Below are positions 13,705 to 28,704 of a stretch of DNA of 64,000 nucleotides, piece by piece. Made by a program: the position numbers and the translations under genes. Source of the DNA: Streptomyces sp. NBC_01210 (lineage in GTDB: Bacteria > Actinomycetota > Actinomycetes > Streptomycetales > Streptomycetaceae); the NCBI RefSeq assembly GCF_036010325.1, contig NZ_CP108549.1, positions 5,208,001 to 5,272,000 of the forward strand, written 5' to 3'. Below the pieces are notes generated by a model. That model was not told the origin of the DNA and ran no database searches. It worked only from the letters and a program-made list of their open reading frames with translations. Every line of letters begins with the position of its first letter. The first letter of the stretch is position 1.

Positions 13705-13818
13705 ATGTGGAATTCGTTGCGGGGCTGGGTGCGCGGGTTGACGCGCAGGATGCGCAGGGACGAAGGGATGACCACGTCCGAGTACGCAATGGGGACGATC
13801 GTTATCTTGGGTACCTGA
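13705..13818 (+). pseudogene. 5' part of Flp-type pilin gene, interrupted by the element
   Basis: The frame encodes 32 native residues with the Flp prepilin signature DEGMTTSEYAMGTI: the peptidase site follows the glycine and Glu sits at +5, as in type IV prepilins. It then runs into foreign sequence and stops after five more codons (VILGT). The missing half, beginning AACAFAAVLYK, is found in frame at 28600-28704. Joining the two pieces gives a normal-sized 66-residue pilin. The break is inside the hydrophobic helix, so the product cannot form a pilus. A weak GGGGGTTGG site precedes the ATG. Confidence 0.9.
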
Positions 13819-13833
13819 ATGACGTCAGGCATG

Positions 13834-13866
13834 TAAGGCAAGTAGGGTAGTTCTGTACTTGCCTTA
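13834..13866. repeat. Left subterminal inverted repeat of the element
   Basis: Perfect 11-bp arms TAAGGCAAGTA (13834-13844) and TACTTGCCTTA (13856-13866), 33 bp inside the left end. The same AAGGCAAGT word occurs near the right end, so these are probable recombinase-binding sites. The position just before tnpA would also allow autoregulation. Confidence 0.75.
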
Positions 13867-13880
13867 ACGGTATCCAAGGG

Positions 13881-15056
13881 GTGTTAGGCACGTTGGCTAC
13901 GTCTGCTGTTCTACACCGGCACTACCGAGCTGAACGGGCCATATCGGGGGACGGGTCTACGTACTGGGTCGTCGTCACCGAAGCCTTCGAGCTGCACATC
14001 GAGGCGTGCGCCTGGCTGGCAGGGCGCAAGGACCGGGCCTACAACACCCAGCGCACGTACGCCGGCCGGATCGCCCTGTACCTCTCGTACTGCACCGAGA
14101 ACGCGGTCGACTGGAGCCGTCCCTCCTTGGCGCAACTCATGGCGATGATGCGGTGGCTGGTCGATGAGCCGCTGCCGCCGAAGGGCCGCCGCTCGGCTGC
14201 TGAGCCGCGTTTCCGCGACAAGGGCACGGCGAACAAGATCATGGGCACGGTCGGGGAGTTCCTGACGTGGTCCGCGCTTCAGGGCTGGGTCCCCCCGAGT
14301 GTGGTCAGCCAGCTCGTGCAGCCGAAATTCCTGCACTACGCCCCGCCCGGGTTCGATCCGGGCGAAGACGGCCAGCACCGCACGATCCAGGCGCGAAGGA
14401 TCAAGTACCGCGTCGCGGTGCCGGGTTACGAGTGGCTGTCCGACGACCAGATCAACCAGGTCCTCGACTGCACGACGCACGCCCGCGACAGGTTCCTGGT
14501 GGCCCTGCTGGCGGTCACCGGTATGCGTATCGGCGAGGGCCTGGGGCTGCGGCGTGAGGACATGCATTTCCTGCCCGACTCCACCTCGCTCGGCTGCCGG
14601 GTCGAGGGACCGCACGTGCATGTGCGGCGCCGTCTGAACAGCAACAACGCGTACGCCAAGTCGCACTATCCGCGGTGGATTCCGGTGGAGGCCGACACCG
14701 TGGAGCAGTACGCCGCCTACCGCTACGAGCGCGACGCGGTACCGGAGGCCGAGGGCTGCGACATGGTGTTCGTGAACCTGTTCCGCGCCCCGCTCGGCGA
14801 GCCGATGAAGTACCCCAGCACGTATGAGCTGTTCAAGCGGCTCGCGACCCGCGCCAGGTTCCGCGCCCGCCCGCACATGCTGCGGCACTCGGCGATCACC
14901 CGGTGGCTCCGCAACAAGGTGCCCCGGGACGTGGCCCAGAACATGGCCGGACACCAGTCGCCGCAGTCGATGGACCCCTACACCCACGCAACCGACCAGG
15001 ACAAACGCGACGCCGTCAAGCTGGTGGCCGCCAAGAGGAAGGAAGCCCGTCAGTGA
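13881..15056 (+). CDS. tnpA: Tyrosine recombinase, TnpA of the Tn554-type trio
   Basis: A 391-residue tyrosine recombinase. An N-terminal SAM-like core-binding region covers residues 35-135, and the catalytic set is complete: R216 (GMRIGEG), H332-x-x-R335 (HMLRHSA), H358 (GHQS) and the nucleophile Y367 (DPYTHAT). It cleaves and rejoins the element ends and target. It is the first of three overlapping genes; its stop overlaps the GTG of tnpB. The start is uncertain: GTG 13881 would give a TTA second codon (the rare leucine codon read by bldA tRNA in Streptomyces), while TTG 13893 would avoid it and sits at a better distance from AAGGGG. Confidence 0.9.
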   Translation: MLGTLATSAVLHRHYRAERAISGDGSTYWVVVTEAFELHIEACAWLAGRKDRAYNTQRTYAGRIALYLSYCTENAVDWSRPSLAQLMAMMRWLVDEPLPPKGRRSAAEPRFRDKGTANKIMGTVGEFLTWSALQGWVPPSVVSQLVQPKFLHYAPPGFDPGEDGQHRTIQARRIKYRVAVPGYEWLSDDQINQVLDCTTHARDRFLVALLAVTGMRIGEGLGLRREDMHFLPDSTSLGCRVEGPHVHVRRRLNSNNAYAKSHYPRWIPVEADTVEQYAAYRYERDAVPEAEGCDMVFVNLFRAPLGEPMKYPSTYELFKRLATRARFRARPHMLRHSAITRWLRNKVPRDVAQNMAGHQSPQSMDPYTHATDQDKRDAVKLVAAKRKEARQ

Positions 15057-17584: not shown

Positions 17585-18150
17585 GCGAGGTGAAGCGGAC
17601 CCCCGGCGACGTCCTGCGCGAGACCCGCAAGAAGGACAGCCAGACCAAGCGGGCCAAGGTGCTGGCCACAGTGGACGCGATGAAGGCCAGGGGCGAGACG
17701 GTCACCTTCCTCGCCGTCGCCCGCGCCGCAGGCGTCTCCAGGTGGCTCGTCTACGCCGAAGGCGTCCGTGAGCACATCGAGGCCGCCATGAAGAGCCAGA
17801 CCAAGGCCGAGCGCCGAACGAAGCAGGCCGGCCGGGACGCCTCTGCGGCGAGCCTGGCCACCGATCTGGCACTGGTCCGCGAGGAGAACAAGGCCCTGCG
17901 CGACGAGCGTGACCGCCTCAAGAAGGCCGTCCAGCGCTCGCTGGGCGCCCAACTCGACCAGGCCGGGACCAAGGAACTGACCGCGCGGGTCAACGAGCTT
18001 CTGGCGGCCGTGGAACGAATCACTCTGGAACGCGATGAGATACGCGCTGAACGGGACGAGCTGAAGCGCAAGCTCACCGAGGCCGAGGACGACCTGACTG
18101 CCGCCCGCGAGGCGGGCAAGCGGATGCTCAAGCAGATCAACCGCACCTGA
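17581..18150 (+). CDS. tnpC: TnpC-like coiled-coil accessory protein (DUF6262 type)
   Basis: A 189-residue protein with a helix-turn-helix-like N-terminal half (TFLAVARAAGVSRWLVY, residues about 40-57), then a long charged coiled coil from about residue 95 to the end (repeated Glu/Arg/Lys heptads). Tn554 TnpC is a small protein that improves the efficiency and orientation of transposition; this one has the same position, start overlap (ATGA) and character. No catalytic residues are evident. A strong hairpin follows immediately. Confidence 0.82.
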   Translation: MSEVKRTPGDVLRETRKKDSQTKRAKVLATVDAMKARGETVTFLAVARAAGVSRWLVYAEGVREHIEAAMKSQTKAERRTKQAGRDASAASLATDLALVREENKALRDERDRLKKAVQRSLGAQLDQAGTKELTARVNELLAAVERITLERDEIRAERDELKRKLTEAEDDLTAAREAGKRMLKQINRT

Positions 18151-18166
18151 CCCGGCACGATAGAGG

Positions 18167-18194
18167 CGGCCCGGCGGTTGTCGCCGCCGGGCCG
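18167..18194. terminator. Bidirectional terminator between tnpC and the opposing operon
   Basis: Perfect 11-bp arms CGGCCCGGCGG / CCGCCGGGCCG with a 6-base loop, located 16 bases after the tnpC stop and 16 bases before the stop of the opposing gene. Confidence 0.8.
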
Positions 18195-18210
18195 TTCAGT
18201 GCACCGGGGG

Positions 18211-18780
18211 TCAGGCCGAGGCGGTGGACTGATCCGAGGTCAACTCGGCGATCTGGGCCTCCAGGTCCGCGATCCGCTCGGCTTGTCGCCGCATTGTCCC
18301 CTGGTTCTTCACGACCTTGCTGCCCAGCCTCTCCACGCCGCTGAAGGTGCGGATGCCGCCTTCGGCGGCCTCCGCCATCTGCCCGAACGCATCCGCGTCG
18401 AGGCTGTTGGGGTTGCCGGCCTCGAACGAGCAGGCCCGGTGCATGTCGCCCATGTAGGCCACGGCCTTGCGGCAGGCGAGCAACGCGTCGCGGGCGCCGA
18501 ACTCGTCGCCCTGGCCCAGCTTGTGGAAGCGCGTCACCCTCGCTCCGCGCCTGAGCGGGTCGCGGGAGGCCATGAACTGCTCCAGCCGGTGCCCGAGCAC
18601 ATGGGCGGCGACCCGGGCCTTGGGCACCGCACGCCGCAGGCGGCGGTCGGGGATGCCGGTGCCGCGGGAGATGTCCGTGTAGGACAGTTCACGGCCCGCG
18701 TTGGGCCCGAGCCACAGCAGGACGTCGATGGCGTCCTGCTCCAGCTGGGAGGGGGTGTCACTGTCGCGCTTGCGGCTCAT
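18211..18780 (-). CDS. Element-borne protein of unknown function with winged-helix-like N-terminus and coiled-coil tail
   Basis: A 189-residue protein I do not recognise. Residues 12-55 read like a winged-helix DNA-binding fold (LEQDAIDVLLWLGPNAGREL followed by YTDISRGTGIPDRRLRRAV). The middle is helical with three cysteines, and the last 35 residues form a short coiled coil (RRQAERIADLEAQIAEL). It is the last gene of a three-gene operon; its ATG overlaps the upstream stop. Its position beside the transposase trio suggests an element-maintenance or regulatory role, but that is inference. Confidence 0.6.
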   Translation of the reverse strand: MSRKRDSDTPSQLEQDAIDVLLWLGPNAGRELSYTDISRGTGIPDRRLRRAVPKARVAAHVLGHRLEQFMASRDPLRRGARVTRFHKLGQGDEFGARDALLACRKAVAYMGDMHRACSFEAGNPNSLDADAFGQMAEAAEGGIRTFSGVERLGSKVVKNQGTMRRQAERIADLEAQIAELTSDQSTASA

Positions 18781-19760
18781 CCCAGCTTCCTCTCGCTCTC
18801 GTCCAGGAACGCCTGTAGAGCCTCGTCGTTCAGCGCCGTGTAGGGGCTGGCGGCCAGGTCGCGGATGAAGGCGATGGCCGCCTCCGACGCGGTGCACAGG
18901 TCGGTGATGGCCCGGCTGCGGTCGCCGGTGAAGTGCACCTGGTGACGCTGCAGCAGCGACAGTGCCCGCAGCGTGGCGAGGCGGACCTCGGTCATCTCGG
19001 TGAAGACCTGCAGAGCCACGTCGGGTTCGGACTGTTCTCGCGATGTGGCTCGGACGGCCCGCTCGACATCCGCGGTATCCGCCTCCCGTGCCTGACGGTC
19101 CGGGTGTGCTTCCTCCACATCACACGCGCGCTCGTTCTTTTCGGCCGCCTTGCGGGCTGCGACACGGTCTTCGAGGTCCGCTCGCATCTCGCGCCGTTCG
19201 AACTCCGCCAGCGCTTCCTGGGCGGCGGCACGGGTGGTGGCGTCGGCCAGGATCGCCGTCTTCAGCGCCTTCGGCTGCTGAGCGACGTAGACGGGGGAGC
19301 CCGGCTTGATTCCGGCCCGCATCGCTTCCTGCTCGATCGCCTGCCGTCGCTCGCCGTTGTTCATGCGAGCTTCGTAGCTGCGGTAGTAGCCGTGCTCGCC
19401 GAAGAACGGCACTTCCTCCTCGTCCGGGAGATCAACGTGAACGCCAGGCGCCAGCTTGTGAAACGGGAGAACGATGCCGTCGTCAGCCGCACGTTTCCAT
19501 GCTTCGTGGAAGGCCATGATCCGCTTGGCGCTGCTTCCCGACCGGCTCGCGAATTCCCGGGCGCTGATGCGCCGGAAAACGTTTCGGTCGAAACGTTTCG
19601 TGGACTCCTGTCCGAATCCGATGCCGTGGCCCTCGTCGGGTTCGACGCGGCGGGCGATCAAGAGCGCTCGGGCCCAGCCGCCTTTGCGGTCGTGGGCGGC
19701 GAACTCTTCGATATCAGCGCTGAGGCGATCCTCGCCGTCGTCTGCTGCGGTCGGCTCCAT
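18777..19760 (-). CDS. Element-borne protein of unknown function, ParB-like helix-turn-helix possible
   Basis: A 327-residue acidic, mostly helical protein not assignable to a family by eye. An early ISAREFASRSGSSAKRIMAF segment (residues about 70-90) looks like a helix-turn-helix; long charged helices cover residues 180-260. It overlaps both neighbours as ATGA, so the three genes are co-translated. No signal peptide or membrane helix. Confidence 0.6.
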   Translation of the reverse strand: MEPTAADDGEDRLSADIEEFAAHDRKGGWARALLIARRVEPDEGHGIGFGQESTKRFDRNVFRRISAREFASRSGSSAKRIMAFHEAWKRAADDGIVLPFHKLAPGVHVDLPDEEEVPFFGEHGYYRSYEARMNNGERRQAIEQEAMRAGIKPGSPVYVAQQPKALKTAILADATTRAAAQEALAEFERREMRADLEDRVAARKAAEKNERACDVEEAHPDRQAREADTADVERAVRATSREQSEPDVALQVFTEMTEVRLATLRALSLLQRHQVHFTGDRSRAITDLCTASEAAIAFIRDLAASPYTALNDEALQAFLDESERKLG

Positions 19761-20602
19761 CACACACCCACCAGATCGCGGGCCTCGGCCCGGCTGTCGG
19801 CGGCAGTCATCTGGTCGTCGAGGACCCTGACCCTGATCCACGTGGCGAGGACGTCCAGGGTCCCCAGAACTTCCTTGCAGGCGACCCTCTGTTCGTCGGT
19901 GAAGGCCAGTGAGGCGGACGGCGGGTAGCGGCTCATGAAAGCGGCCCCCTGGTCACTGAGCCGCACCAGGTCCCGGGCCACGGCCGCAGCCTTGTCGGAC
20001 CTCCCCCCACCGCACCCCGGGCCGCGGGTCTCACGGTCCCGGCGACGCTTTTCGTCCATGACCCGCTTCAGGGCGTCGTGCACCTCCGCCTTCTTCTCCA
20101 CTAGGTCCCGAAGAGCCTGGTCACGCTCCTGGGGTGGCAGGGAGCCGAGATAGTCGGCCAGGGTCGTGTCGCTGGAGGGGTCCAGCAGATCCCGCAAGGC
20201 CGGCTCCACCCCCAGGGCACGGCGGTACTGGGGCACGCTGACGCGGCCGGCGCCCGCCTCGCGCGCTTCCTGCAGCAGCGAGCGGAGGGTGCTGTAGCCC
20301 TCGTCGTACGGCTTGCCGGAGGTGGTCAGGCGGGCGCCTTCACGAAGCGCGCTGTAGCTGACGTGGACGCCGCTGTCGGCCACGATCTGCCGCACGGGCG
20401 GGGTGCACATGCGGGCGGTGTGACGGTACTGCCGGGCCGTCTTGGGGTTCAGGCTGATCTCGTCGCAGTACCGGTCGAAGGCGCTGTCCGGGCCGCCCGG
20501 GGCCGTGACGGACAGCAGCTTGTCGCCGATCACCAGCCGGTTCTCGCAGCCCTCGTTCATCAGCCGACGGCCCTCGCGCACGTCCTGGTCTGTGTAGCTC
20601 AT
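19760..20602 (-). CDS. Element-borne putative DNA-binding protein (DUF6192-like)
   Basis: A 280-residue protein and the first gene of the operon. Residues 20-75 (RLVIGDKLLSV ... SLNPKTARQYRHTARMC) resemble the helix-turn-helix of actinomycete DUF6192-type proteins, in which a fixed short sensor-like segment precedes the recognition helix; I am moderately sure only of the HTH. The central part is Lys/Arg-rich and helical. A 19-bp-arm hyphenated palindrome lies 60 bases upstream and could be its operator. The ATG at 20602 was chosen as the first methionine giving a globular start (MSYTDQDV). Confidence 0.6.
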   Translation of the reverse strand: MSYTDQDVREGRRLMNEGCENRLVIGDKLLSVTAPGGPDSAFDRYCDEISLNPKTARQYRHTARMCTPPVRQIVADSGVHVSYSALREGARLTTSGKPYDEGYSTLRSLLQEAREAGAGRVSVPQYRRALGVEPALRDLLDPSSDTTLADYLGSLPPQERDQALRDLVEKKAEVHDALKRVMDEKRRRDRETRGPGCGGGRSDKAAAVARDLVRLSDQGAAFMSRYPPSASLAFTDEQRVACKEVLGTLDVLATWIRVRVLDDQMTAADSRAEARDLVGV

Positions 20603-20661
20603 ACGGATGTCCCATCGCAGACAGTTCGACGGGCGCGGAGTGTAATCAGATGAACACGTCA

Positions 20662-20710
20662 CTCCGGTGCATCAACTTGGTTCATGTGGAGCCAAGTTGA
20701 CGCACCGGAG
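20662..20710. repeat. Long hyphenated palindrome upstream of the three-gene operon
   Basis: Nineteen-base arms, CTCCGGTGCATCAACTTGG at 20662-20680 and CCAAGTTGACGCACCGGAG at 20692-20710, with one mismatch and an 11-base loop. It lies 60 bases upstream of the first gene's ATG, a place for an operator rather than a terminator. A transcript-end hairpin of a lost gene is the alternative. Confidence 0.75.
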
Positions 20711-20751
20711 GCGCGGATGGGCGACATCGATCCGTCGTTGTGCTCGTACGA

Positions 20752-21045
20752 CTACACCCATGTGGGCGACAGCAAGCGCCGCCCACGACCGCTGAGCCGT
20801 CGGCCAGCGCCAGCTCGGGGGTGCTCCCCGCGGGTCAGAGGTCGCTTCTCCGGTCTGCCCGCGCACCAGCTGGGTGCACAGCTCTCGCCGTGCTGCCCGA
20901 CGCCCCTCAGGGCTTCACGAACGATCCCGAGCTGATCGGCGACCTGGGAAATCGAACGGACCTTCTGACCCGTCTCCTGACGTATCTCGAACGCGAGCCG
21001 GACAGCCTGCTCCCGCTCAGCGGAATACTTCCTCGGCGCTGGCAT
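20752..21045 (-). pseudogene. IS3-type transposase orfA remnant
   Basis: The first 50 codons match the helix-turn-helix start of IS3-family OrfA proteins (MPAPRKYSAEREQAVRLAF, then ISQVADQLGI and EALR). Where the family continues with a tryptophan-centred helix and a leucine zipper, the frame here turns to low-complexity Arg/Gly sequence, so a frameshift or replacement has occurred near 20900. No OrfB is present. It lies 71 bases past the last bacteriocin-cluster gene. Confidence 0.6.
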
Positions 21046-21116
21046 GGCTCCAACCCTTCCAGGGTTCAGAGCCTTCAAAGAAGCCGGGGCGGCTGATGCC
21101 GTGACGCAGTTCCGGA

Positions 21117-21911
21117 TCACATGCCTTGCCGGCGGAACTGTGCGACGGCCCCCACGAAGAGTGCCCCGGTGAAGAGGCCGAAGACGAGGACCGCGGTCCC
21201 GGGCGCCATACGCTGGGAGGCCTCGGCGAGGAAGGCCCCCTCATCGCCTGCGATGTTCGACATCGAAGTGCCCGCGGCGAACGGCAGATACTTCGCGGCC
21301 TGCGCCAGCCACGGAGAGTCGGCGAACAGGCCGCCCGTCCTGACCATGGGCTCGAGCACGTAGGGGATCGCCACCAAGGAGACGGTGCCGACGGCCTGTG
21401 AGCGGAACACGACGGTGATCGCAATGCCGATCAGGGTCCAGCACACGGTCTGCAGCAGCAGGCCGCCATGGAGCACGATCAGGTCTCCGTATGAAACACC
21501 CGAGATCAGCTCCGCCGGCAGGGTGGCGCTCGCCACGATCCAGGACACTGCGGTGGCGCACCCCGTCACCGCCAGCGCGAATCCGCCGGCCACGAGTGCC
21601 TTCGCCGCGACGGCCCGGCTGCGAACGGGAGTCACGGCGAGCGTCGCCCTGATCGTGCCATGCCGGTAGTCACCTCCCATGGCGAGTGCCCCGAAGACCC
21701 CGGCTGCGAGGGGGGCGAACGAAGCCTTATTGATGACCGCGACCAATGCTTCTTGGGCGGTGACGGCTATCTCTTCCGACTGGAACTCGGTGACGGTGAA
21801 GGCATAGCCCCAGGCCGCAAGGGCAGTCACCGCGACCGCTGCGGCTGCGAGCAGCCACGTCGATGTCAGGGTGGTCAGGCGCACCCACTCATACCGCACA
21901 GGCCTGTTCAC
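21117..21911 (-). CDS. ABC-2 type permease of the bacteriocin cluster
   Basis: A 264-residue integral membrane protein with six hydrophobic segments and the MGGDYRHGTIRATLA segment found in ABC-2 permeases just after the first helices. It is paired with the ATPase gene upstream (GTGA overlap) and is the last gene of the cluster. In circular-bacteriocin loci such a second ABC module gives immunity or assists export, which is the inferred role here. Confidence 0.85.
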   Translation of the reverse strand: MNRPVRYEWVRLTTLTSTWLLAAAAVAVTALAAWGYAFTVTEFQSEEIAVTAQEALVAVINKASFAPLAAGVFGALAMGGDYRHGTIRATLAVTPVRSRAVAAKALVAGGFALAVTGCATAVSWIVASATLPAELISGVSYGDLIVLHGGLLLQTVCWTLIGIAITVVFRSQAVGTVSLVAIPYVLEPMVRTGGLFADSPWLAQAAKYLPFAAGTSMSNIAGDEGAFLAEASQRMAPGTAVLVFGLFTGALFVGAVAQFRRQGM

Positions 21912-22831
21912 CGGGCACCCGCCTTCTCATCCGTCACGTATTCCACACTCGCCGCCGAGGCGCGCAGGAATGCCTCCTCCAGCGTCGCTTCGGCGACCGT
22001 CAGCTCTGTGACGATGACGTTCTCGGCAAGCGCCGTGGCTGCGATCTCCCGCTGCGTGAGCTCCTTGACCAGCAGACAGCCGTCCGCGCTGGACTCGACG
22101 TCCGCGCCGAGCCGTAGTAGTGCGCGGCGGAGCTGGTCCGGTGAGTCCGCCCGTACTCGGACGGCTCCCCCGTCGTATCCGCGCTTGAAGTCGGCGAGGG
22201 TGCTGTCGCAGATGAGACGCCCCTTGCCGATCAACACGACCCGCTCAGCCAGCTCGTCCAGATCCGACATCTGGTGGGAGGAGACGAAGACGGCGTTGCC
22301 CGCTGCCGCGTACTCCTTGAGGAAGGTGCGCAACCACCGCATGCCCTGCGGGTCCATACCGTTACCGGGCTCGTCGAGGATGAGGACGTCGGGGGAGCCG
22401 AGTAGCGCGCAGGCGAGGCCCAGCCGTTGCAGCATGCCCAGGGAGAAGCCCTTCGGCCGGTGCCGCGCGACAGGGAGGAGCCCCACGAGGTCGAGGACTT
22501 CGTCGATGCGTTTTTCCGGGATGCCGATACCTCGGGTGAGCATGCGTAGATGTGCGCGCACGGAACGCCCGGGGTGGTAGGCCCTTGTCTCCAGCAGTGC
22601 TCCGACGCGCTGCGCCGGATCGGCCAGTTCCGAGTAGCGCTGACCGTCGAAGAGTGTCCTGCCGCTTCCCCGCTCCAGCTCGAGCATGAGCCGCAGGGTT
22701 GTCGACTTCCCCGCGCCGTTGGGCCCCAGGAATCCTGTGACCGCCCCGGGTTCCACGGTGAAGCGGAGCCCGTCCACTACCACCTTCTCACCGAATGTCT
22801 TCGAGAGAGCGTCGACTTGAACCGTTGCCAC
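21908..22831 (-). CDS. ABC transporter ATP-binding protein, bacteriocin-cluster export or immunity
   Basis: A 307-residue ATPase of the CcmA/BcrA-like class. Walker A is GPNGAGKSTT, the signature is FSLGMLQRLGLA and Walker B is VLILDEPGNGMDP. The C-terminal 90 residues are the usual extension of drug and bacteriocin self-protection ATPases. The GTG at 22831 has TGGGGA upstream and touches the stop of the previous gene. It overlaps the permease start downstream, so the two are a unit. Confidence 0.88.
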   Translation of the reverse strand: MATVQVDALSKTFGEKVVVDGLRFTVEPGAVTGFLGPNGAGKSTTLRLMLELERGSGRTLFDGQRYSELADPAQRVGALLETRAYHPGRSVRAHLRMLTRGIGIPEKRIDEVLDLVGLLPVARHRPKGFSLGMLQRLGLACALLGSPDVLILDEPGNGMDPQGMRWLRTFLKEYAAAGNAVFVSSHQMSDLDELAERVVLIGKGRLICDSTLADFKRGYDGGAVRVRADSPDQLRRALLRLGADVESSADGCLLVKELTQREIAATALAENVIVTELTVAEATLEEAFLRASAASVEYVTDEKAGAR

Positions 22832-23490
22832 TATTCCCCACTCCCCGGCGATGCACCGGAACACCCGTCAAGGGTGATGGTCGTGTCCGCTGCCACGGTG
22901 GCCGGCGGATCGTGTGCGATCAGCACGACGGACGCATGCGTGGCCCACGCGCACATCTCGGCTGAGAGCAGCTCGATGCCCGCGGAGTCCAGTCCGTTGA
23001 AGGGTTCGTCGAGCATGACGAGCGCGAACTCGCCCAATGTGCACATGGTCAGCCAGAGCTTCCTTCTGTTGCCCGTGGACAGTTCCTTTGCAGCGTGGTC
23101 CAGCCACGGCTCCAGTCCGTAGCGCACGGCCCTTTTCAGTCCCGGATCAGGACTGATCCCGCGGCAATGGGCTGCGAAGACGAGGTGGTCCCGCACGGTC
23201 ATGCTGGGATACAGCGACACGTCCGTACGGCAGACCCTGCGCGCGGCCCGACTCTGCGGATCTCGTGCGTCCCGGTTGCCGACGCGCACCTGACCGTGCC
23301 ACGGCGGAAGGTAACCGCTGCACAACTCGAGGAAGGTCGACTTACCGGCACCGTTTCTGCCCGACACCATGGTGAGACCACGGCCCGGCAGGGACAGGGA
23401 GAGGTCCACGAACACCGGGGCGTACTGGTCGTATCCGGCGGTTACGGACTTCAGCTCTAGCGCAGTTTCAGGATGCTTCGTCTCACGCAT
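22831..23490 (-). CDS. Second ABC ATP-binding protein of the bacteriocin cluster
   Basis: A 219-residue ATPase with Walker A SGRNGAGKST, Walker B LVMLDEPFNGLD and the H-loop IAHDPPA. The signature region reads ELSTGNRRKLWL, a departure from LSGGQ in which Thr and Asn replace the usual residues; similar forms occur in short ABC-2 ATPases. It overlaps the preceding 506-residue membrane gene by 34 bases and adjoins the next ATPase gene. The large membrane protein is its likely partner. Confidence 0.85.
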   Translation of the reverse strand: MRETKHPETALELKSVTAGYDQYAPVFVDLSLSLPGRGLTMVSGRNGAGKSTFLELCSGYLPPWHGQVRVGNRDARDPQSRAARRVCRTDVSLYPSMTVRDHLVFAAHCRGISPDPGLKRAVRYGLEPWLDHAAKELSTGNRRKLWLTMCTLGEFALVMLDEPFNGLDSAGIELLSAEMCAWATHASVVLIAHDPPATVAADTTITLDGCSGASPGSGE

Positions 23491-24977
23491 GCCGTCGCAA
23501 CTCCAGTAAGTATCAGGGCGTAGCAGAATGCCAGGGCCGGTCCGGCGGTCCATTCCTGTGAGAAGACCCAGACCACTGGGCCGGTCAGCACGAGTCCGAG
23601 GAATCCGGTGACAGGGTCGGAGGCTGCACTGCCATCGGTGTTTCGCGGCGGAGTCGCCATGGTCTCGGCGACGAGTGCGGCGGATATGCCGCACACAGCC
23701 GTGATCACAGGTATGGCGGTGAGGCCCGGGCCGGCCAGGAGCAGTACGGCAGCGGCGGTTGCGACCCCGGCGCACACGCCGCACGCGGTCCACACCAGAA
23801 CCAACGCGCGGGCGATGGACCAGGAGGACATGCCCGCCTCCCAGGTAGCGCGCAGCACGGCCCGCAATGTGGTCGGGCCGATCGCTCGGGACAGCATCTC
23901 CGCAAGGCCGAGTACCATCACCGCGACCGCCGCCGCTGCCACCTTGTACGTATGGGCAGGGAGGTCTGCCACTGGCAGGGGGAAGGGGCTTGCCAGTGCG
24001 AAACCCGCTATCGCGGCAACCCCTCCGGCCCCGGCCAGGAACACCTGCTTGACCAGCGGGTACACCGCGCTGCCACGCAGTTCTCGTACCAGGATCGTGG
24101 CGAGCGGTGGAGGCTTGGTGCCGGACCCCGTGTCCGCGGGAGTACGCGCACCCGGACGCGAAGCGGCCGCGAGGGGGAACGAGTGGAAAGGCATCCTGCC
24201 GAGGTCACGTACAAGGCGGAAGGAGGCCGTGCCACCGACGGCCACGACCAGCGTGGCACACGCTCCGGCAAACGCCGGCGAGTAGAGCGCCGGCATCCTG
24301 ACGTCGGTGGATCCCATCAACGGAGTCGCGATGAACAGCGCAGCCGAGATGCCCAGGGCCAGGGAGCTGACGATGGTCGCGAGCGCCCTGACAGACTCCC
24401 GGCTCCGCCCTTGGCGCAGGCTCAGCGCGGATCGTGCGGCGACCGACAGGTTGACGGCGCACATGCTGACCGGAACGACCGCGGCGAAGACGAGATGCGG
24501 AATGCTGATGGCCGGGACCGGCCAGTAGGCGAACAGGAAACCAGCGGGCATCATGCCAAGCAGCAGATGGTACGCGCAGATACGGCGGGCGCAGTAGACG
24601 AGGAACACCTCCCGTGACGAGATGTCCATCGCCCGGAAGAGTGCTGCGTTCGGCGATCGGGCCACCATGAACCGACGCTGGGAGAACGCCTCCCGCAGGG
24701 CGTACGAGGTAGTCCAGTAGAGCGACAACACCGCCAAGGCGACCAGTAGCTCCTCGGCTTGGACACCTTCTTCTTCCGCGATGGGCCTGATCAGGGAGAA
24801 CCCGGCCACCGTCACGATGAAGACGAGCGGCACGGCCAGCACGTACAGGCCGGCGAGTAGATGTCTGGCCGTGCGCACCGTCATACGCAGGCGCAGAGCG
24901 GCGAGTATCTCGAACAGGTAGAAGTCAGACACCGCGCGGAATCTGATCCTGTCCAACTGTGGTTCCGTACTGGACAT
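23457..24977 (-). CDS. Large polytopic membrane protein, ABC permease partner
   Basis: A 506-residue protein with about twelve hydrophobic helices in two clusters separated by a polar loop near residues 265-305. No family motif is certain, but the position directly before an ABC ATPase gene with a 34-base overlap, and the size, fit a fused ABC-2-like permease exporting the bacteriocin. A start at ATG 24977 gives a cytoplasmic N-terminus (MSSTEPQLDRIRFR). It is 29 bases downstream of the small membrane gene. Confidence 0.7.
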   Translation of the reverse strand: MSSTEPQLDRIRFRAVSDFYLFEILAALRLRMTVRTARHLLAGLYVLAVPLVFIVTVAGFSLIRPIAEEEGVQAEELLVALAVLSLYWTTSYALREAFSQRRFMVARSPNAALFRAMDISSREVFLVYCARRICAYHLLLGMMPAGFLFAYWPVPAISIPHLVFAAVVPVSMCAVNLSVAARSALSLRQGRSRESVRALATIVSSLALGISAALFIATPLMGSTDVRMPALYSPAFAGACATLVVAVGGTASFRLVRDLGRMPFHSFPLAAASRPGARTPADTGSGTKPPPLATILVRELRGSAVYPLVKQVFLAGAGGVAAIAGFALASPFPLPVADLPAHTYKVAAAAVAVMVLGLAEMLSRAIGPTTLRAVLRATWEAGMSSWSIARALVLVWTACGVCAGVATAAAVLLLAGPGLTAIPVITAVCGISAALVAETMATPPRNTDGSAASDPVTGFLGLVLTGPVVWVFSQEWTAGPALAFCYALILTGVATACVRRSILKLR

Positions 24978-25006
24978 GTTGCTTCCTCGAGCAGCCGAGC
25001 GGCTGC

Positions 25007-25411
25007 CTAGAACCTGCTCTGCGGAGGCTTGCGAGAGGGGCCCTCACCCGCCGCGAACAGCGACACCACCGCCATGACGAGAGAGATGACCACAGCCAGG
25101 AGCGAGAACAGGGACTGTGGCGCGGACGCCACCAAATCGCTGAGCATGATCGAGTTCGACGCCATGGCGAGGATCGACACTCCTGCCATCCACCATGTTG
25201 TCTCTCTCGCCTTGCGTACCAGGACAGCCGAGGCGGGCAGCAGCACGGCGAAGACCAGCAACTGCACTGCCAAGACCGCTTTGAGCACGTTGGGGCCGAC
25301 GTTCCCCACGGGGTTCAGTGGATGTGTGAGGAAGCACAGCAGTGCCGCCGCGCCGAGCAGCAGCACGGCCGCTGCGGCAAGTCGGACCGTCTTCGTGTAG
25401 AGCGCGAGCAT
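25007..25411 (-). CDS. Small four-helix membrane protein of the bacteriocin cluster
   Basis: A 134-residue hydrophobic protein with four predicted helices (near residues 8-28, 42-66, 74-92 and 100-121) and a short basic tail. I cannot assign a family. Small hydrophobic or basic membrane proteins in circular-bacteriocin loci commonly serve immunity or maturation, so it is an immunity candidate by position only. The start has a GAGAGAGAT stretch about 12 bases upstream. Confidence 0.6.
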   Translation of the reverse strand: MLALYTKTVRLAAAAVLLLGAAALLCFLTHPLNPVGNVGPNVLKAVLAVQLLVFAVLLPASAVLVRKARETTWWMAGVSILAMASNSIMLSDLVASAPQSLFSLLAVVISLVMAVVSLFAAGEGPSRKPPQSRF

Positions 25412-25446
25412 AGGAGGTATCTCTCTCTTGCTTTCGATGCCCTCGG

Positions 25447-26064
25447 TCACCCGACCGCAGTGAACGCGGCGAGGCCGATGCTGCAGCAGTAGAGGGCGAT
25501 GATCTTGCCTGGCGGCAGGTGCCGCCACTGGCCCCGGAAGAACACCGGAACCAGCAGGACCACCGCGGCGATGTAGAGGTAGTAGACGATGCCCTGGGTC
25601 GGGTCGACCACCTCGAATGCGAGGGCGGCCAACTGCGGGGGCACGAGACACAGGGCGAGAACCGGGAAGAACGCACCAGTGCGAACTCCCCGGCCCAGCG
25701 ACCGACTCGCGGTGAAGACCCGCCGCTCCAGGGCGCGGGCCACGAAGACGTAGCAGGCGTAGACGAAGACGGTCAGCAGGACGCCACCGCCCACGGCTAC
25801 GTTGACCGCCAGGTCCTCCAGCGCGGGATCGCCGATCTCTGCCCGCTGCTTCGGCGTTATCAGGGTCTCCGCGTAGGCGAATGCGGTCGGCAGCCTGCAC
25901 AGCACGAGCGCGAGTGCGACGAAGTACAGCGAGAGCCACAAGGACTTGCTCGTCGGCGCCGCGGCCTTGGCGGACTCGACGGTGTGACGGACTTCGTCGT
26001 CGAACGGCGCCTTGAGCGCGGACTCGTCCGCAACCGCCGGCTGATGAGATGTGTCAGCTCTCAT
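25447..26064 (-). CDS. Multi-pass membrane protein of the bacteriocin cluster
   Basis: A 205-residue protein: a polar, acidic N-terminal 40 residues, then five hydrophobic segments. No recognised motif. It begins 5 bases after the SpoIIM-like stop codon, so the two are surely co-translated, and it likely works with that protein in processing, cyclisation or export. Alternative: part of the transporter. Confidence 0.6.
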   Translation of the reverse strand: MRADTSHQPAVADESALKAPFDDEVRHTVESAKAAAPTSKSLWLSLYFVALALVLCRLPTAFAYAETLITPKQRAEIGDPALEDLAVNVAVGGGVLLTVFVYACYVFVARALERRVFTASRSLGRGVRTGAFFPVLALCLVPPQLAALAFEVVDPTQGIVYYLYIAAVVLLVPVFFRGQWRHLPPGKIIALYCCSIGLAAFTAVG

Positions 26065-26069
26065 GTTTC

Positions 26070-26630
26070 CTATCTCGCTGCCATGACAATGGCTTCGATA
26101 CACGCGGCGCCGACAATGACCGACACCCCGACCAGAAAGATTCGCAATGAGTCCGCCATTGCATGCACATATCGGCGCAGCATCCCGGTATTCTCCTGGC
26201 GACTCCCACGGGCCATTGCGACGGCAGCTGGATACAGACCAGCAGCACCCGCAAGAATGAATCCCAGGAATTCGAACCCCACGTACGCTCCGGTCTCGGT
26301 CATGAACCCCGACCATCCGGAATTGGACGTGACGACAGCCAGCGTTGCTCCCACATAGGCAGCGAGCATGGTGATGCCGATCAGGCTCACCACTCCAAAG
26401 GAAACAGCTCCCGCATAAAGCAGCATCGCGGATGGGATGTTCCTGCCGAGAATCTCCCAGAAGGCCTGGCCGAAACCGCTTTCCGGTGCCACTGTCCGTG
26501 GACTCAACTCCGCACCGGCCAGAGCTGAATACCCAAGTACCGCACCGAGACCGAAAATCGTGGCGCTCGCAAGGAGCGAGAGCAGAACGCTCCTGCTCCT
26601 TGCGAGACCAACCATGGCGTTGACAGCCAT
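26070..26630 (-). CDS. SpoIIM/DUF95-family membrane protein, circular-bacteriocin maturation
   Basis: A 186-residue membrane protein with the SpoIIM/DUF95 layout: N-terminal helix, then the conserved ILGRNIPSAMLLYAGAVSFG segment, a GITMLAAYVGATLAVV helix and the acidic GFEFLGFILAGAAGLYPA segment. In Firmicutes, DUF95 proteins are the hallmark membrane proteins of circular-bacteriocin operons and are required for production and immunity. It begins 16 bases after the stop of the precursor gene. This stretch is visibly less GC-rich than the core genome, which supports acquisition from outside. Confidence 0.75.
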   Translation of the reverse strand: MAVNAMVGLARSRSVLLSLLASATIFGLGAVLGYSALAGAELSPRTVAPESGFGQAFWEILGRNIPSAMLLYAGAVSFGVVSLIGITMLAAYVGATLAVVTSNSGWSGFMTETGAYVGFEFLGFILAGAAGLYPAAVAMARGSRQENTGMLRRYVHAMADSLRIFLVGVSVIVGAACIEAIVMAAR

Positions 26631-26646
26631 CAGGTAAGAATGAGGT

Positions 26647-26922
26647 TTAGGCGATCGCGAACGCCTTGCCCTTCTTCTTGATGTAGTAGAGCACCGTCGC
26701 GCTGATGGCAGAGATGACGCCACCACTGAACATCGCCCCGACGATGGCCAGCGCCAGGCCACCTGCGGAGATGGCGTCCACAACCTGCCCGGCGACGCTC
26801 GCGCTGATGCCCAGTGAACCGGCCACCCAGAACGCTGCGAAACCAGCCATGGCCAGCCCGGCCGCGCCGATGGCGCCGGCCGCCAACGCGGCGAAGCTGT
26901 TCTTGGACATTATCGACTGCAT
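26647..26922 (-). CDS. Circular bacteriocin precursor, AS-48/uberolysin-like
   Basis: A 91-residue peptide. ATG 26922 has GGGAG five bases upstream. The first 32 residues are a hydrophobic leader ending AAFW; the remainder (VAGSLGIS... to the final Ala, about 59 residues) aligns with the enterocin AS-48 core. Shared features are the LGI-x-A-x-VAG-x-V start (AS-48 FGIPAAVAGTV), an AGG turn, a central SGG, and a C-terminal IKKKGKAFAIA against IKKKGKRAVIAW. The product would be a cationic, helical, head-to-tail cyclised peptide that permeabilises membranes. The terminal Trp of AS-48 is absent, as in garvicin ML, which ends in Ala. Exact cleavage (before W32, V33 or nearby) is uncertain. It is first in an eight-gene operon of membrane proteins and ABC transporters. 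Confidence 0.85.
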   Translation of the reverse strand: MQSIMSKNSFAALAAGAIGAAGLAMAGFAAFWVAGSLGISASVAGQVVDAISAGGLALAIVGAMFSGGVISAISATVLYYIKKKGKAFAIA

Positions 26923-27393
26923 GCAAGCTCCCGTTTCCTGAGGATGTACGGAAGCTGGCCCAAGGCAGAGTTCCCCCATGTAGCAAGCCCCCGCTGATCC
27001 GTGAATAGTTGCCCAGGCCGTGATCGCCGCGGCGATGAAGGCGAGGGGTCGAGTGTCTCTTGACTCACCCCAACCGCATGGTCTTACCGGGCTGTTGGGG
27101 CGGCAGCCGCAATACGATCATCGGTCCGTTTCAAGTGTCAAGCCCACTCACCTGGGAGACCAGCCTGCATCTGACGGCACATCAAACGGCTCAACTTCTC
27201 GCCCTGCCTGTCGCAACTAACCGTGAGTGACACACGTGGCTCAGAATGCTCTCCGACTGGTAATTGGATTCTGAACGTGCCGAGTTGCCTGCTCGTTGAT
27301 TTCTTGTGCTTGAAGTTAAGGATGCTCGCGAGGACTCGCTCACGTGAAGGCGCCTTTTCTGGAGTCGCTGCCTGACATCGCCAAAGTGGGTCT
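26923..27393. other. Upstream region of the bacteriocin operon, no gene seen
   Basis: About 470 bases between the precursor start and the ISL3-type remnant. It must hold the operon promoter. Reading frames here are not convincing; codon-scale composition is mixed and AT-rich stretches occur near 27210-27330. Confidence 0.45.
27112..27141 (-). promoter_or_regulatory. Candidate promoter of the bacteriocin operon
   Basis: On the minus strand a perfect -35 box TTGACA (27136-27141) is followed after 18 bases by TCGTAT (27112-27117). It lies about 190 bases upstream of the precursor ATG, leaving a long leader. The -10 match is only partial. Confidence 0.35.
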
Positions 27394-28136
27394 TCATGGT
27401 TGAGCGGTGCGGAGGTGCCCGCGGGCTCGGCGGGTGGTGACGCAGCGTGTCCGTAGGCGCTGGTTGTCGGCGTTCCTGAACCCGAACTCGTTGCGGGCGA
27501 TGAGCTTGAGCACGCGGTTGATGCCCTCGATATTGGCGTTGCTGTACCCGGTGTCGATGAACGCGGCGATCTCGGTCCACCAGCGGTCGACGGTGACGGC
27601 GAGGCGGCGCACTTCGGGGATGTCGCTGTCCGCGCACCAGCTGAGGAACTTCCAGCGGGGCGTGGCCGACTTGATGTCGGCTCGCACCGGTGCGAGCGAG
27701 GGCGAGGAGGGTGCGCAGGGACTCCTTGGCGATCCACGCGGTCAGCAGCGTCTGGCCGACCCTCCCCTCGGCCAGCAGCAGCTTCCACATCTTCGCGAAC
27801 TGCTCATCGCTCAGGTCCTCGCGATTGCGGAGCAGCCGACGCCTGGCCTTCCACTCCGGGTCCGTGGCCCGTCCGCGCCGGCCGCGGACCTCGGCGGTGG
27901 TGCGCCTGCGCACCGTGGACAGCATCTTGTTCGCCAGCTGCACGACGGGGAAGTGATCGACCACGATGACGGCGTCGGGCAGTCCCGTGCGGATCGCGGC
28001 CCGGTAGGTGGCCGACATGTCGATCGCGACGTGACGGATGTTCTTCCGCCAGGTCAGCGGGTGGTCAAGAGCCAGGCCAGGACATCGGCGACGGTGCGGC
28101 CCTCGACCTGACCGAGCAGCCCGCCGGTGCCTCAGC
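27394..28136 (-). pseudogene. ISL3-family transposase remnant, truncated and frameshifted
   Basis: Three out-of-frame pieces read as the C-terminal two thirds of an ISL3 transposase: GQVEGRTVADVLAWLL, then VAIDMSATYRAAIR and VVDHFPVVQLANKM, then after another shift near 27690 GYSNANIEGINRVLKLIARN. These carry the family's D, D-H-F and E positions. At least two frameshifts (near 28070 and 27690) and the missing N-terminus make it inactive. Its 5' side abuts a transporter fragment at about 28130. Confidence 0.8.
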
Positions 28137-28556
28137 TCTATCTTCGCCCCTGCCTCCGTCGGCGGTCTGATCGGCGCGGCGATCTCCCGCAAGGTCATCT
28201 CATACTTCACCCCTTACCTCGGCGCCCAGGGGGCACTGACCGTGGCAGCGATCGGTTCCGCCGCTGTGCTGATCGCGCTTGTCCTGTCCCCGGCGTGCCA
28301 ACTCCGGGACCTGCCGTCGGCACCGGAAGAACCCCGTCAAGGCGGCAGCGGACGGGCAGGCCGAAGGCTGAGACGGAGAACCTCGACCTCGAACGGTGAG
28401 GCCCTTCGAATCATGCCTGGTGAGGCACTGGCGGAGGATACGAGGGGCGCGCCCCCAACAGGCTTTCCAAGCGAGCGGCCCCTCCCCGTTGCCGGCCGCT
28501 CTTGTTCCCCTCCGACTACTGACGACACTTGCCTTACTTGCCAGAACAGGTTCTAG
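28128..28556 (+). pseudogene. 3' fragment of a membrane transporter gene (MFS-like)
   Basis: From about codon SSIFAPASVGG onward the plus-strand frame encodes a plausible last two membrane helices and a charged tail (GALTVAAIGSAAVLIALVL), like the end of an MFS efflux protein. The first part of the gene is missing, cut at the ISL3 remnant. The last 50 codons are low in coding character, so the true stop may have been lost. Family assignment is weak. Confidence 0.35.
28527..28554. repeat. Right subterminal repeats of the element
   Basis: Two abutting copies of ACTTGCC (in ACTTGCCTTACTTGCC, 28527-28542), the reverse complement of the AAGGCAAGT word at the left end, followed by an AGAAC-AG-GTTCT inverted repeat (28543-28554). 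They lie 36-68 bp inside the right end. Confidence 0.65.
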
Positions 28557-28599
28557 CTCGTTTACCTGCAACTTCGCTTGACAGCACTAGATAACCGGC

Positions 28600-28704
28600 G
28601 CCGCGTGTGCCTTCGCAGCCGTCCTGTACAAGGTCGTGACCAGCGGGGCCGTCTCGGCGGCGCTGCAGTCGGTGATCGGGAAGGCGCTCAATGCGCAGTT
28701 CTGA
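28600..28704 (+). pseudogene. 3' part of the interrupted Flp-type pilin gene
   Basis: Encodes AACAFAAVLYKVVTSG and the rest of the pilin tail ending KALNAQF, in the frame that continues the 5' piece at 13705-13800. It has no start of its own. Its last codons overlap the first possible ATG (28691) of the TadE-like gene. Confidence 0.88.

What the first reader, a model, noticed from the sequence alone, without database searches (positions are those of the whole stretch)
26647..26922. A circular (AS-48/uberolysin-like) bacteriocin precursor in a Streptomyces-type genome
Sequence: 91-aa precursor with hydrophobic leader and a core sharing the VAG, AGG, SGG and IKKKGK landmarks with enterocin AS-48 in the right order. 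Knowledge: circular bacteriocins are best known from Firmicutes. Inference: the mature peptide is a 59-60-residue cationic helical ring. This may be a new subfamily: it ends in Ala, not Trp.
Basis: partly seen in the sequence, partly recalled or inferred. Interest (0 to 1): 0.95.

Follow-up and report, generated by a model that had tools for sequence, protein, structure and literature searches.

The report
Streptomyces circular bacteriocin, shifted ring joint
A Streptomyces-type genome carries, on what looks like a mobile element, a gene set for a ring-shaped antibacterial peptide of a kind best known from Firmicutes, and its relatives suggest that the ring is closed one residue away from the usual place.

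Summary
The finding is real. On the minus strand, 26922-26647 encodes a 91-aa precursor above the curated cut-offs of Pfam PF09221 and NCBIfam TIGR03651. It heads an eight-gene block (26922-21117) with SpoIIM, a 506-aa multi-TM protein, two small membrane proteins, two ABC ATPases and a permease, as in circular-bacteriocin clusters. NCBI already names close Streptomyces relatives 'uberolysin/carnocyclin family circular bacteriocin', so presence in Streptomyces is not new to databases.

Less ordinary is the ring joint. In 32 of 32 clade-1 sequences (window included) an aromatic residue (21 Trp, 11 Tyr) directly precedes [VI][AV]G, and none ends in an aromatic. Closing the ring as Ala91-Trp32 puts both ends in gapless register with AS-48, NKR-5-3B and circularin A, Trp32 taking the slot of their C-terminal Trp/Tyr. 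I propose a 60-residue ring, residues 32-91, closed one residue from the usual family-i point. Circularity, activity and exact start are inferred; structure models were inconclusive. The cluster sits on a ~14.8-kb insertion that splits a DUF4244 gene.

The parts
26647..26922 (-). Circular-bacteriocin precursor, 91 aa: leader ~1-31, proposed core 32-91
   Evidence: PF09221 and TIGR03651 above cut-off; relatives
26650..26829 (-). Proposed core coding region, Trp32 to Ala91 (60 residues); predicted cyclic mass 5780.78 average, 5777.20 monoisotopic
   Evidence: Conservation boundary, register scan, mass; inferred
26070..26630 (-). SpoIIM/DUF95 membrane protein, 186 aa
   Evidence: PF01944 30.1 bits against 26.9; phmmer match to the Anoxybacillus SpoIIM frame in L016, E 6.5e-5
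25447..26064 (-). 205-aa membrane protein, 5 TM-like segments; role unknown, in the place of small membrane proteins of other clusters
   Evidence: Hydropathy; no Pfam hit over cut-off
25007..25411 (-). 134-aa membrane protein, 3 TM-like segments; possible immunity protein (inference)
23457..24977 (-). 506-aa protein with 10 TM-like segments, compared with the large membrane protein of AS-48/circularin-type clusters by size and topology only
   Evidence: homology not shown; no match in 60 of 60 other genomes searched
22831..23490 (-). ABC transporter ATPase, 219 aa; start overlaps the end of the previous gene
   Evidence: PF00005 61.7 bits
21908..22831 (-). ABC transporter ATPase, 307 aa; best NCBIfam match the lantibiotic-protection ATPase TIGR03740 (167.9 bits), below its cut-off (309.75)
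21117..21911 (-). ABC-2 type permease, 264 aa
   Evidence: PF12679 32.3 bits against 27.2
13800..28600 (.). Insertion (~14.8 kb) that carries the cluster and splits a DUF4244 gene (left part 13705-13800, right part 28600-28704); ends approximate
   Evidence: both parts match PF14029, profile positions 3-23 and 24-54
13881..18150 (+). Recombinase trio: 391 aa (PF00589), 843 aa (PF00589), 191 aa (DUF6262)

Best explanation
The locus makes and exports a cationic, head-to-tail cyclised bacteriocin of the PF09221 family. The precursor (91 aa) has a hydrophobic leader of about 31 residues. The leader is removed before Trp32 and Ala91 is joined to Trp32, giving a 60-residue ring in which the aromatic residue sits in the same ring position as the C-terminal Trp/Tyr of AS-48, NKR-5-3B and circularin A; it is simply encoded at the other end of the core. 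Processing and export would need the SpoIIM protein, the 506-aa membrane protein and the 219-aa ATPase; the 307-aa ATPase with its permease, and perhaps the 134-aa protein, would give self-protection. The product would act by inserting into membranes of other Gram-positive bacteria. Shown by computation: family membership, gene content, constraint, the invariant aromatic slot, ring register. Inferred: cyclisation, start of the core, roles of the individual genes, antibacterial action. Likelihood: circular bacteriocin cluster about 0.9; core starting exactly at Trp32 about 0.65.
For: PF09221 and TIGR03651 above curated cut-offs; 35 of 37 members of alignment A5 match TIGR03651 and 32 of 37 match PF09221 at E 0.001. 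SpoIIM, ABC ATPases and permease in one closely spaced block; reported cluster gene content: precursor, SpoIIM/DUF95 and ATPase/transporter (PMC8534725 section 5; PMC8659200 section 4). Aromatic residue in slot 32 in 32 of 32 clade-1 sequences (21 W, 11 Y), C-terminus aromatic in 0 of 32 (25 A, 6 S, 1 G), entropy 2.03 at position 31 against 0.93 at 32. Register scan for the window (starts 28-37): best ungapped score at start 32 with AS-48 (72, next 39), NKR-5-3B (56, next 35), circularin A (48, next 33). Over 31 of the 32 clade-1 sequences (P0032 left out for its extra C-terminal residues) the slot start is best in 31, 27 and 30 of 31 with AS-48, NKR-5-3B and circularin A, and with the aromatic slot not scored in 31, 27 and 25 of 31. 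In circularin A, Y69A, V and I blocked production (0-2% yield; PMC10028692 section 8). dN/dS 0.07-0.43 over the eight genes.
Against: No experiment shows a ring, its ends or activity. Structure models are of low confidence and find no circular bacteriocin. The leader is not free of conservation: Gly22 is kept in 30 of 31 and Leu23 in 25 of 31, so Trp32 could belong to a leader signal. In circularin A the leader variant L-1W (leader MFW) works slightly better than wild type (PMC10028692 passage), while Trp as core residue 1 or 2 is not accepted; so one known machinery takes Trp at -1 and refuses it at +1. AS-48 W70A still gives some circular product, so the aromatic is not needed everywhere. 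The register test has limited resolution: on known precursors, each scored with the references of the other two, it picks the true start in 3 of 6 cases with the slot masked and 5 of 6 unmasked; on three subgroup-ii precursors it picks the known start in 3 of 9 cases, all with AS-48. Clade-1 rows are related and not independent; the profile search behind them scored only the 7994 candidates sharing most words. Homology of the 506-aa protein to the large membrane protein of Firmicutes clusters is not shown.
Confidence: 0.7

Rival explanations
1. Circular bacteriocin cut after Trp32: the ring is the 59-mer Val33-Ala91 and Trp32 is the last leader residue, part of a recognition signal.
For: Val1 is a known family-i N-terminus (circularin A; PMC7562740 section 9); in circularin A Trp is accepted at -1 but not as core residue 1 (V1W); other leader positions are conserved too (Gly22 in 30 of 31).
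Against: It breaks the gapless ring register by one residue with the three references and leaves no aromatic at the joint, where circularin A Y69A/V/I fail.
Confidence: 0.2
2. Family-ii style cut further upstream: the ring starts at Phe31 or Ala30, as acidocin B starts Ile-Tyr-Trp before Ile-Ala.
For: Acidocin B (2mwr) and plantacyclin B21AG (6wi6) end in Ala and have Trp as core residue 3 before IA.
Against: Position 31 is variable in clade 1 (M, A, L, F, S; entropy 2.03); for the window, starts 30 and 31 score below 32 with all three references.
Confidence: 0.1
3. A linear (leaderless or leader-cleaved) membrane peptide or holin-like protein, not cyclised.
For: Hydrophobic helical prediction; cyclisation cannot be seen in sequence, and no cyclising enzyme had been identified in this class (PMC8659200 section 2.5).
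Against: Curated circular-bacteriocin models above cut-off; SpoIIM and ABC genes in the same block.
Confidence: 0.05
4. A decayed or silent cluster.
For: It lies on a mobile element beside a transposase fragment; no sigma-70-type promoter match was found in 20900-27500 (a weak test for Streptomyces).
Against: All eight frames are open and under purifying selection, dN/dS 0.07-0.43 against NBC_01481.
Confidence: 0.1

Closest known systems
Enterocin AS-48 / circularin A / NKR-5-3B (subgroup i circular bacteriocins, PF09221, TIGR03651)
   Same: Family models, cationic C-terminal stretch, SpoIIM plus ABC genes, ring sequence around the joint in gapless register
   Different: They end in Trp/Tyr and start at Met/Val/Leu; here the core would start at Trp (Tyr in relatives) and end in Ala (Ser or Gly in some relatives). 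In pPD1 and Anoxybacillus the large membrane protein gene comes before SpoIIM, here after it
Anoxybacillus amylolyticus circularin-like peptide (L016, plasmid pDSM15939_2)
   Same: Ring sequence GKAAAIAW/VAGTLGVS against GKAFAIA/WVAGSLGIS; SpoIIM, large hypothetical protein and ATPase next door
   Different: Its Trp is encoded at the C-terminus; its core start is inferred from circularin A, not measured
Acidocin B / gassericin A / plantacyclin B21AG (subgroup ii)
   Same: C-terminal Ala; Trp directly before [IV]A..[FL]G[IV]; closure point upstream of the Trp
   Different: 58 residues with pI values from 4.03 to 9.99 across the six subgroup-ii entries (table in PMC10028692; plantacyclin B21AG 9.99, +3); closure two residues further upstream; no sequence hit to them from P0001
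Streptomyces kronopolitis P0002, Streptomyces sp. NPDC007861 P0003, S. bacillaris P0024, named by NCBI 'uberolysin/carnocyclin family circular bacteriocin'
   Same: Same family; P0002 93% and P0003 88% identical; same aromatic slot
   Different: P0024 belongs to the Tyr subgroup (Y-IAGMFGLS, C-terminal Ser)

Membership tests
Circular bacteriocin, PF09221/TIGR03651 (circularin A/uberolysin) | Score above the curated cut-off of the family models | tested here: met
   38.9 against 23.6 bits; 35.1 against 30.7 bits
Circular bacteriocin, PF09221/TIGR03651 (circularin A/uberolysin) | Small precursor with leader; hydrophobic core of about 58-70 residues | tested here: met
   59 or 60 residues, GRAVY about 1.2, pI 9.70; range in the table of PMC10028692
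Circular bacteriocin, PF09221/TIGR03651 (circularin A/uberolysin) | SpoIIM/DUF95 gene and ABC ATPase beside the precursor | tested here: met
   PF01944 30.1 against 26.9; PF00005 twice
Circular bacteriocin, PF09221/TIGR03651 (circularin A/uberolysin) | Large multi-TM protein (as in AS-48 and circularin-type clusters) | tested here: inconclusive
   506 aa, 10 TM-like segments; no detectable homology, but the hhalign test also missed SpoIIM, which phmmer found, and so lacks power
Circular bacteriocin, PF09221/TIGR03651 (circularin A/uberolysin) | Four- or five-helix closed bundle | tested here: inconclusive
   All-helical models of low confidence; the VIA rows list no circular bacteriocin
Circular bacteriocin, PF09221/TIGR03651 (circularin A/uberolysin) | Peptide bond between core N- and C-terminus | not testable with these tools
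   Needs mass spectrometry
Circular bacteriocin, PF09221/TIGR03651 (circularin A/uberolysin) | Antibacterial activity | not testable with these tools
   Needs an overlay assay
AS-48/NKR-5-3B-type ends (usual in subgroup i; known exceptions garvicin ML and carnocyclin A) | Aromatic C-terminal residue | tested here: not met
   Ends in Ala; 0 of 32 clade-1 members end in an aromatic. So not filed in that subgroup
Subgroup ii (acidocin B/gassericin A) | C-terminal Ala, and Ile, Val or aromatic at the N-terminus | tested here: met
   C-terminal Ala is in the sequence; N-terminus Trp32 (proposed) or Val33 both fit; pattern stated in PMC7562740 section 9
Subgroup ii (acidocin B/gassericin A) | Relatively low pI and net charge, as PMC10028692 describes the subgroup | tested here: inconclusive
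   pI 9.70, charge about +2.8. The subgroup-ii entries of the table in PMC10028692 run from pI 4.03 to 9.99 and from -2 to +3, and plantacyclin B21AG has 9.99 and +3, so this feature does not separate. Not filed in subgroup ii: P0001 has no hit to its solved members and passes the PF09221/TIGR03651 models
Tn554-like element | Two tyrosine recombinase genes followed by a small third gene | tested here: met
   PF00589, PF00589, DUF6262 in a row; that this order is Tn554-like is recalled
Tn554-like element | Exact ends and movement | not tested
   Ends approximate

The most novel reading that the evidence does not exclude
An actinobacterial subfamily of circular bacteriocins encodes its ring with a one-residue circular permutation relative to AS-48, NKR-5-3B and circularin A: the aromatic residue of the joint, there the C-terminal residue, is here the N-terminal residue of the core, and the ring is closed as [Ala/Ser/Gly]-[Trp/Tyr]. 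With subgroup ii (closure two residues before the Trp) there would be at least three natural closure points on one homologous ring. The processing machinery would then not read a fixed C-terminal aromatic but a ring position, with the cut and join able to slide along the joint helix.
Probability: 0.6. Interest if true: 0.68.

Novelty: new variant of a known kind. Interest (0 to 1): 0.52.

Why it matters
How circular bacteriocins are cut and joined is an open question; no enzyme had been identified by 2021 (PMC8659200 section 2.5). In circularin A an aromatic C-terminal residue is required (PMC10028692), and in circularin A/acidocin B hybrids a weak band appears when Ile-Tyr-Trp is moved from the front to the back (PMC10905743 section 13). 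A natural group in which that residue is encoded at the other end, with its own SpoIIM, membrane protein and ATPase, is a direct test of what the machinery reads, and one mass measurement decides it. It also describes an intact, constrained circular-bacteriocin cluster on what looks like mobile DNA in Streptomyces.

Tried and rejected
Structure: two AlphaFold jobs on the precursor (11 and 37 sequences) gave pLDDT 52.8 and 62.5; VIA-align on the second aligned 8 chains and lists six: two Rop variants, three designed bundles and a dengue virus chain, no circular bacteriocin. A linear precursor may simply be a poor object for this. Inconclusive.

Homology of the 506-aa, 205-aa and 134-aa proteins to parts of other clusters: hhalign of alignments of 1-5 sequences found nothing but the permease match to L032 (E 1e-6), and missed SpoIIM, so the test lacks power. 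phmmer against ORFs of 14 fetched loci, other than L002, found the SpoIIM in L032 and L016 (E 1.8e-5, 6.5e-5), the ATPases in many, the permease in L032 (6.6e-9), AS-48 with the precursor (E 0.001), and nothing for the 506-, 205- and 134-aa proteins. The 506-aa protein has no match in 60 of 60 other genomes. No PADLOC model matched five of the proteins.

Distribution: PF09221 in 4 of 392 genomes of the genus draw, 5 of 396 of the phylum (one, G547, below cut-off in a 642-aa frame, is likely chance), 1 of 296 of the class; profile A5 in 8 of 394 of the family (G1238 and G263 lie in frames of 936 and 737 aa, likely chance) and 5 of 396 of the phylum (four at E 6e-4 to 9e-4 in frames of 425-960 aa, likely chance). 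G000 is counted in each; draws overlap. At E 1 the PF09221 control search rang in 2 of 14 control genomes, none over the cut-off; at E 0.001 in none. No match of P0001 on plasmids.

Clade 2 (P0036, P0048, P0050, P0051, P0054) has Val/Ala in the slot after Asp/Asn (4 of 5) or Gly; with the slot masked the register test supports the slot start in 5 of 5 with AS-48 and NKR-5-3B but 1 of 5 with circularin A. P0032/L013 has a C-terminal extension and a doubtful start; it is in the counts of slot and alignment (its last residue there is Ser) and left out of register and tree.

Tree (36 of the 37 A5 rows, 7 of the 18 NKR-type hits, AS-48, circularin A, Anoxybacillus, G477): clade 1 is one side of a branch (92/89), clade 2 another (100/100), but with 63 columns, long branches that meet and an unsettled bootstrap deeper order is unresolved; the slot residue had been moved to the C-terminal side in the c1/c2 rows, which builds one column of the hypothesis in.

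Considered and rejected: holin or chance ORF (family models, constraint); 'ends in Ala' alone as novelty (garvicin ML, subgroup ii); low charge as a mark of subgroup ii (plantacyclin B21AG has pI 9.99). No paper describing a Streptomyces circular bacteriocin, or this aromatic-first group, was recognised in the listings of searches (open-licence PMC only; several listings were capped below the number of hits, and most listed papers were not opened). 'Venezuelacyclin' (PMC7132975, passages) may be such a group: its source organism was not visible and supplements could not be read, so priority is open. Of the papers, outlines or abstracts were seen for PMC8534725, PMC7132975, PMC8659200 and PMC10028692, and beyond that only sections and passages: the ones named in this report, plus section 5 of PMC7132975 and search passages of the same papers.

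Full report
Observation. The stated stretch encodes, on the minus strand, a 91-residue protein with GGGAG 5 nt before the ATG. It passes the curated cut-offs of Pfam PF09221 (38.9 against 23.6 bits) and NCBIfam TIGR03651 (35.1 against 30.7 bits). Single-sequence similarity to solved members is weak (NKR-5-3B E 0.014, AS-48 E 0.11).

Context. Seven genes follow on the same strand: SpoIIM (PF01944, 30.1 against 26.9), 205-aa and 134-aa membrane proteins, a 506-aa protein with 10 TM-like segments, an ABC ATPase of 219 aa, a second of 307 aa and an ABC-2 permease. The 506-aa and 219-aa frames overlap, as do 219/307 and 307/permease, which suggests translational coupling (inference). Published clusters hold at least a precursor, a SpoIIM/DUF95 protein and an ATPase or transporter (PMC8534725 section 5; PMC8659200 section 4). 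The plasmid pPD1 AS-48 cluster and an Anoxybacillus circularin-type cluster fetched here show precursor, large hypothetical protein, SpoIIM and ATPase in that order; in the window SpoIIM comes first. The same eight genes occur in Streptomyces sp. NBC_01481 (L002; protein identities 88-99%), with dN/dS from 0.07 (precursor) to 0.43.

Relatives. A search with the precursor gave three relatives, two of them already named by NCBI as uberolysin/carnocyclin family circular bacteriocins from Streptomyces. A profile search, which scored only the 7994 candidates sharing most words, gave 36 proteins, among them Streptomyces bacillaris, Streptomyces pathocidini, Kitasatospora, Sinomonas and Micrococcus records. 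With the window's protein they form alignment A5 (37 rows): 32 clade-1 rows and 5 clade-2 rows. Nine of the 32 clade-1 rows carry an organism name in the listings, all actinobacterial; the others show none, so 'actinobacterial' rests on those nine and the window. 35 of 37 match TIGR03651 and 32 of 37 match PF09221 at E 0.001.

The joint. In clade 1 the residue just before [VI][AV]G is aromatic in 32 of 32 (21 Trp, 11 Tyr), the residue before that is variable (M, A, L, F, S), and the C-terminal residue is Ala, Ser or Gly in 32 of 32. Known subgroup-i peptides mostly end in Trp, Tyr or Phe and start with Leu, Val or Met, with garvicin ML and carnocyclin A as exceptions; subgroup ii ends in Ala (PMC7562740 section 9). 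Written as rings, AS-48 reads IKKKGKRAVIAW/MAKEFGIPAAVAG and the window reads IKKKGKAFAIA/WVAGSLGISASVAG (slash: the end and start of the core), with no gap if Trp32 belongs to the ring. A scan of possible starts 28-37 gives the best ungapped score at 32 with each of three references. Over 31 of 32 clade-1 rows the slot start wins in 31, 27 and 30 of 31 for AS-48, NKR-5-3B and circularin A, and with the aromatic slot not scored in 31, 27 and 25 of 31. Limits: on known precursors the masked scan finds the true start in 3 of 6 and the unmasked one in 5 of 6 cases; rows are related and do not count as independent; Gly22 and Leu23 of the leader are conserved too.

Subgroup ii fits the same picture by eye. 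Acidocin B and plantacyclin B21AG start IYW-IADQFGI and IVW-IARQFGV and end in Ala, so the Trp before [IV]A..[FL]G lies inside the core there. The joint would then lie after the Trp in AS-48-type peptides, before it here, and two residues before it in subgroup ii. The masked scan backs this only with AS-48 as reference: it picks the known start of gassericin A, plantacyclin and paracyclicin in 3 of 3 with AS-48 (by 1, 4 and 3 points) and in 0 of 6 with the other two.

Experiments of others. Circularin A needs an aromatic last residue (Y69A, V, I blocked, 0-2% yield; PMC10028692 section 8). In circularin A/acidocin B hybrids a faint band appears when Ile-Tyr-Trp is moved from front to back (M2) and not when it is at the front (M1); but M2 has no activity, and M4, with the native front and the Ile-Tyr-Trp back, gave no product (PMC10905743 section 13). 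Against my reading: circularin A accepts Trp at -1 but not as core residue 1 or 2, and AS-48 W70A still circularises in part. These concern machineries of other clusters, so they do not settle the case here.

Mechanism. Leader removal before Trp32, ring closure Ala91-Trp32, export by the SpoIIM/membrane protein/ATPase set, self-protection by the second ABC transporter and perhaps the 134-aa protein, and killing by membrane insertion. Only gene content and sequence pattern are shown; the chemistry and the roles are inferred from the known clusters. Predicted cyclic mass 5780.78 (60-mer) or 5594.57 (59-mer), pI 9.70.

Family placement. By its models the peptide is a PF09221/TIGR03651 circular bacteriocin. 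It does not have the aromatic C-terminus usual in subgroup i, and its ends resemble subgroup ii. Charge does not help to choose: PMC10028692 describes subgroup ii as of relatively low pI and charge, yet the six entries of its table run from 4.03 to 9.99 and plantacyclin B21AG, at pI 9.99 and +3, is at least as basic as this peptide. It is kept out of subgroup ii because it passes the PF09221/TIGR03651 models and has no hit to the solved subgroup-ii members.

Mobile context. DNA shared with the 16.3 kb held of NBC_01481 stops at 21105 and 27341 (93.2% identity), so the cluster lies at a different place there. In the window, a stretch of about 14.8 kb splits a DUF4244 gene whose two parts match PF14029 at profile positions 3-23 and 24-54, between a TadA-like ATPase gene (PF00437) and a TadE gene (PF07811). 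Besides the cluster it carries two tyrosine recombinases and a DUF6262 gene, an order that recalls Tn554 (recalled), and an ISL3 transposase fragment. GC is 0.65-0.69 inside and 0.72-0.73 outside. No empty site was sought in other genomes.

Novelty. Circular bacteriocins, also in Actinobacteria, are known, and the close relatives are named in NCBI; the ten paper searches listed in Tried and rejected showed no study of this group. The new element is the aromatic-first joint of a whole group. I rate it a new variant of a known kind.

Noticed in passing
window 13705-13800 and 28600-28704: A DUF4244 gene next to tad genes is split by a ~14.8-kb insertion; an 11-base inverted match (GTAAGGCAAGT at 13833; ACTTGCCTTAC at 28527) lies near the two ends.
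   Followed up: partly
window 13881-18150: Two tyrosine recombinase genes and a DUF6262 gene in a row, Tn554-like by recalled arrangement.
   Followed up: partly
window 27394-27687: Fragment of an ISL3-family transposase (PF01610) upstream of the precursor.
   Followed up: no
window 18211-20662: Three minus-strand ORFs (228, 354, 300 aa) inside the insertion without a Pfam match at E 0.01.
   Followed up: no
L011, L012, L029-L031: A second group (clade 2) with Val or Ala in the slot, mostly after Asp/Asn, and C-terminal Ala or Gly, with ABC and multi-TM genes nearby.
   Followed up: partly
L025, L026: A further precursor-like type (C-terminal KKGGKKAVIA / KRGGRKAFVA) found with profile A5 in two genomes.
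   Followed up: no
L013 4702-5262 (P0032): A Tyr-type member with extra C-terminal residues PHWAS and an unclear start, perhaps degenerate.
   Followed up: no
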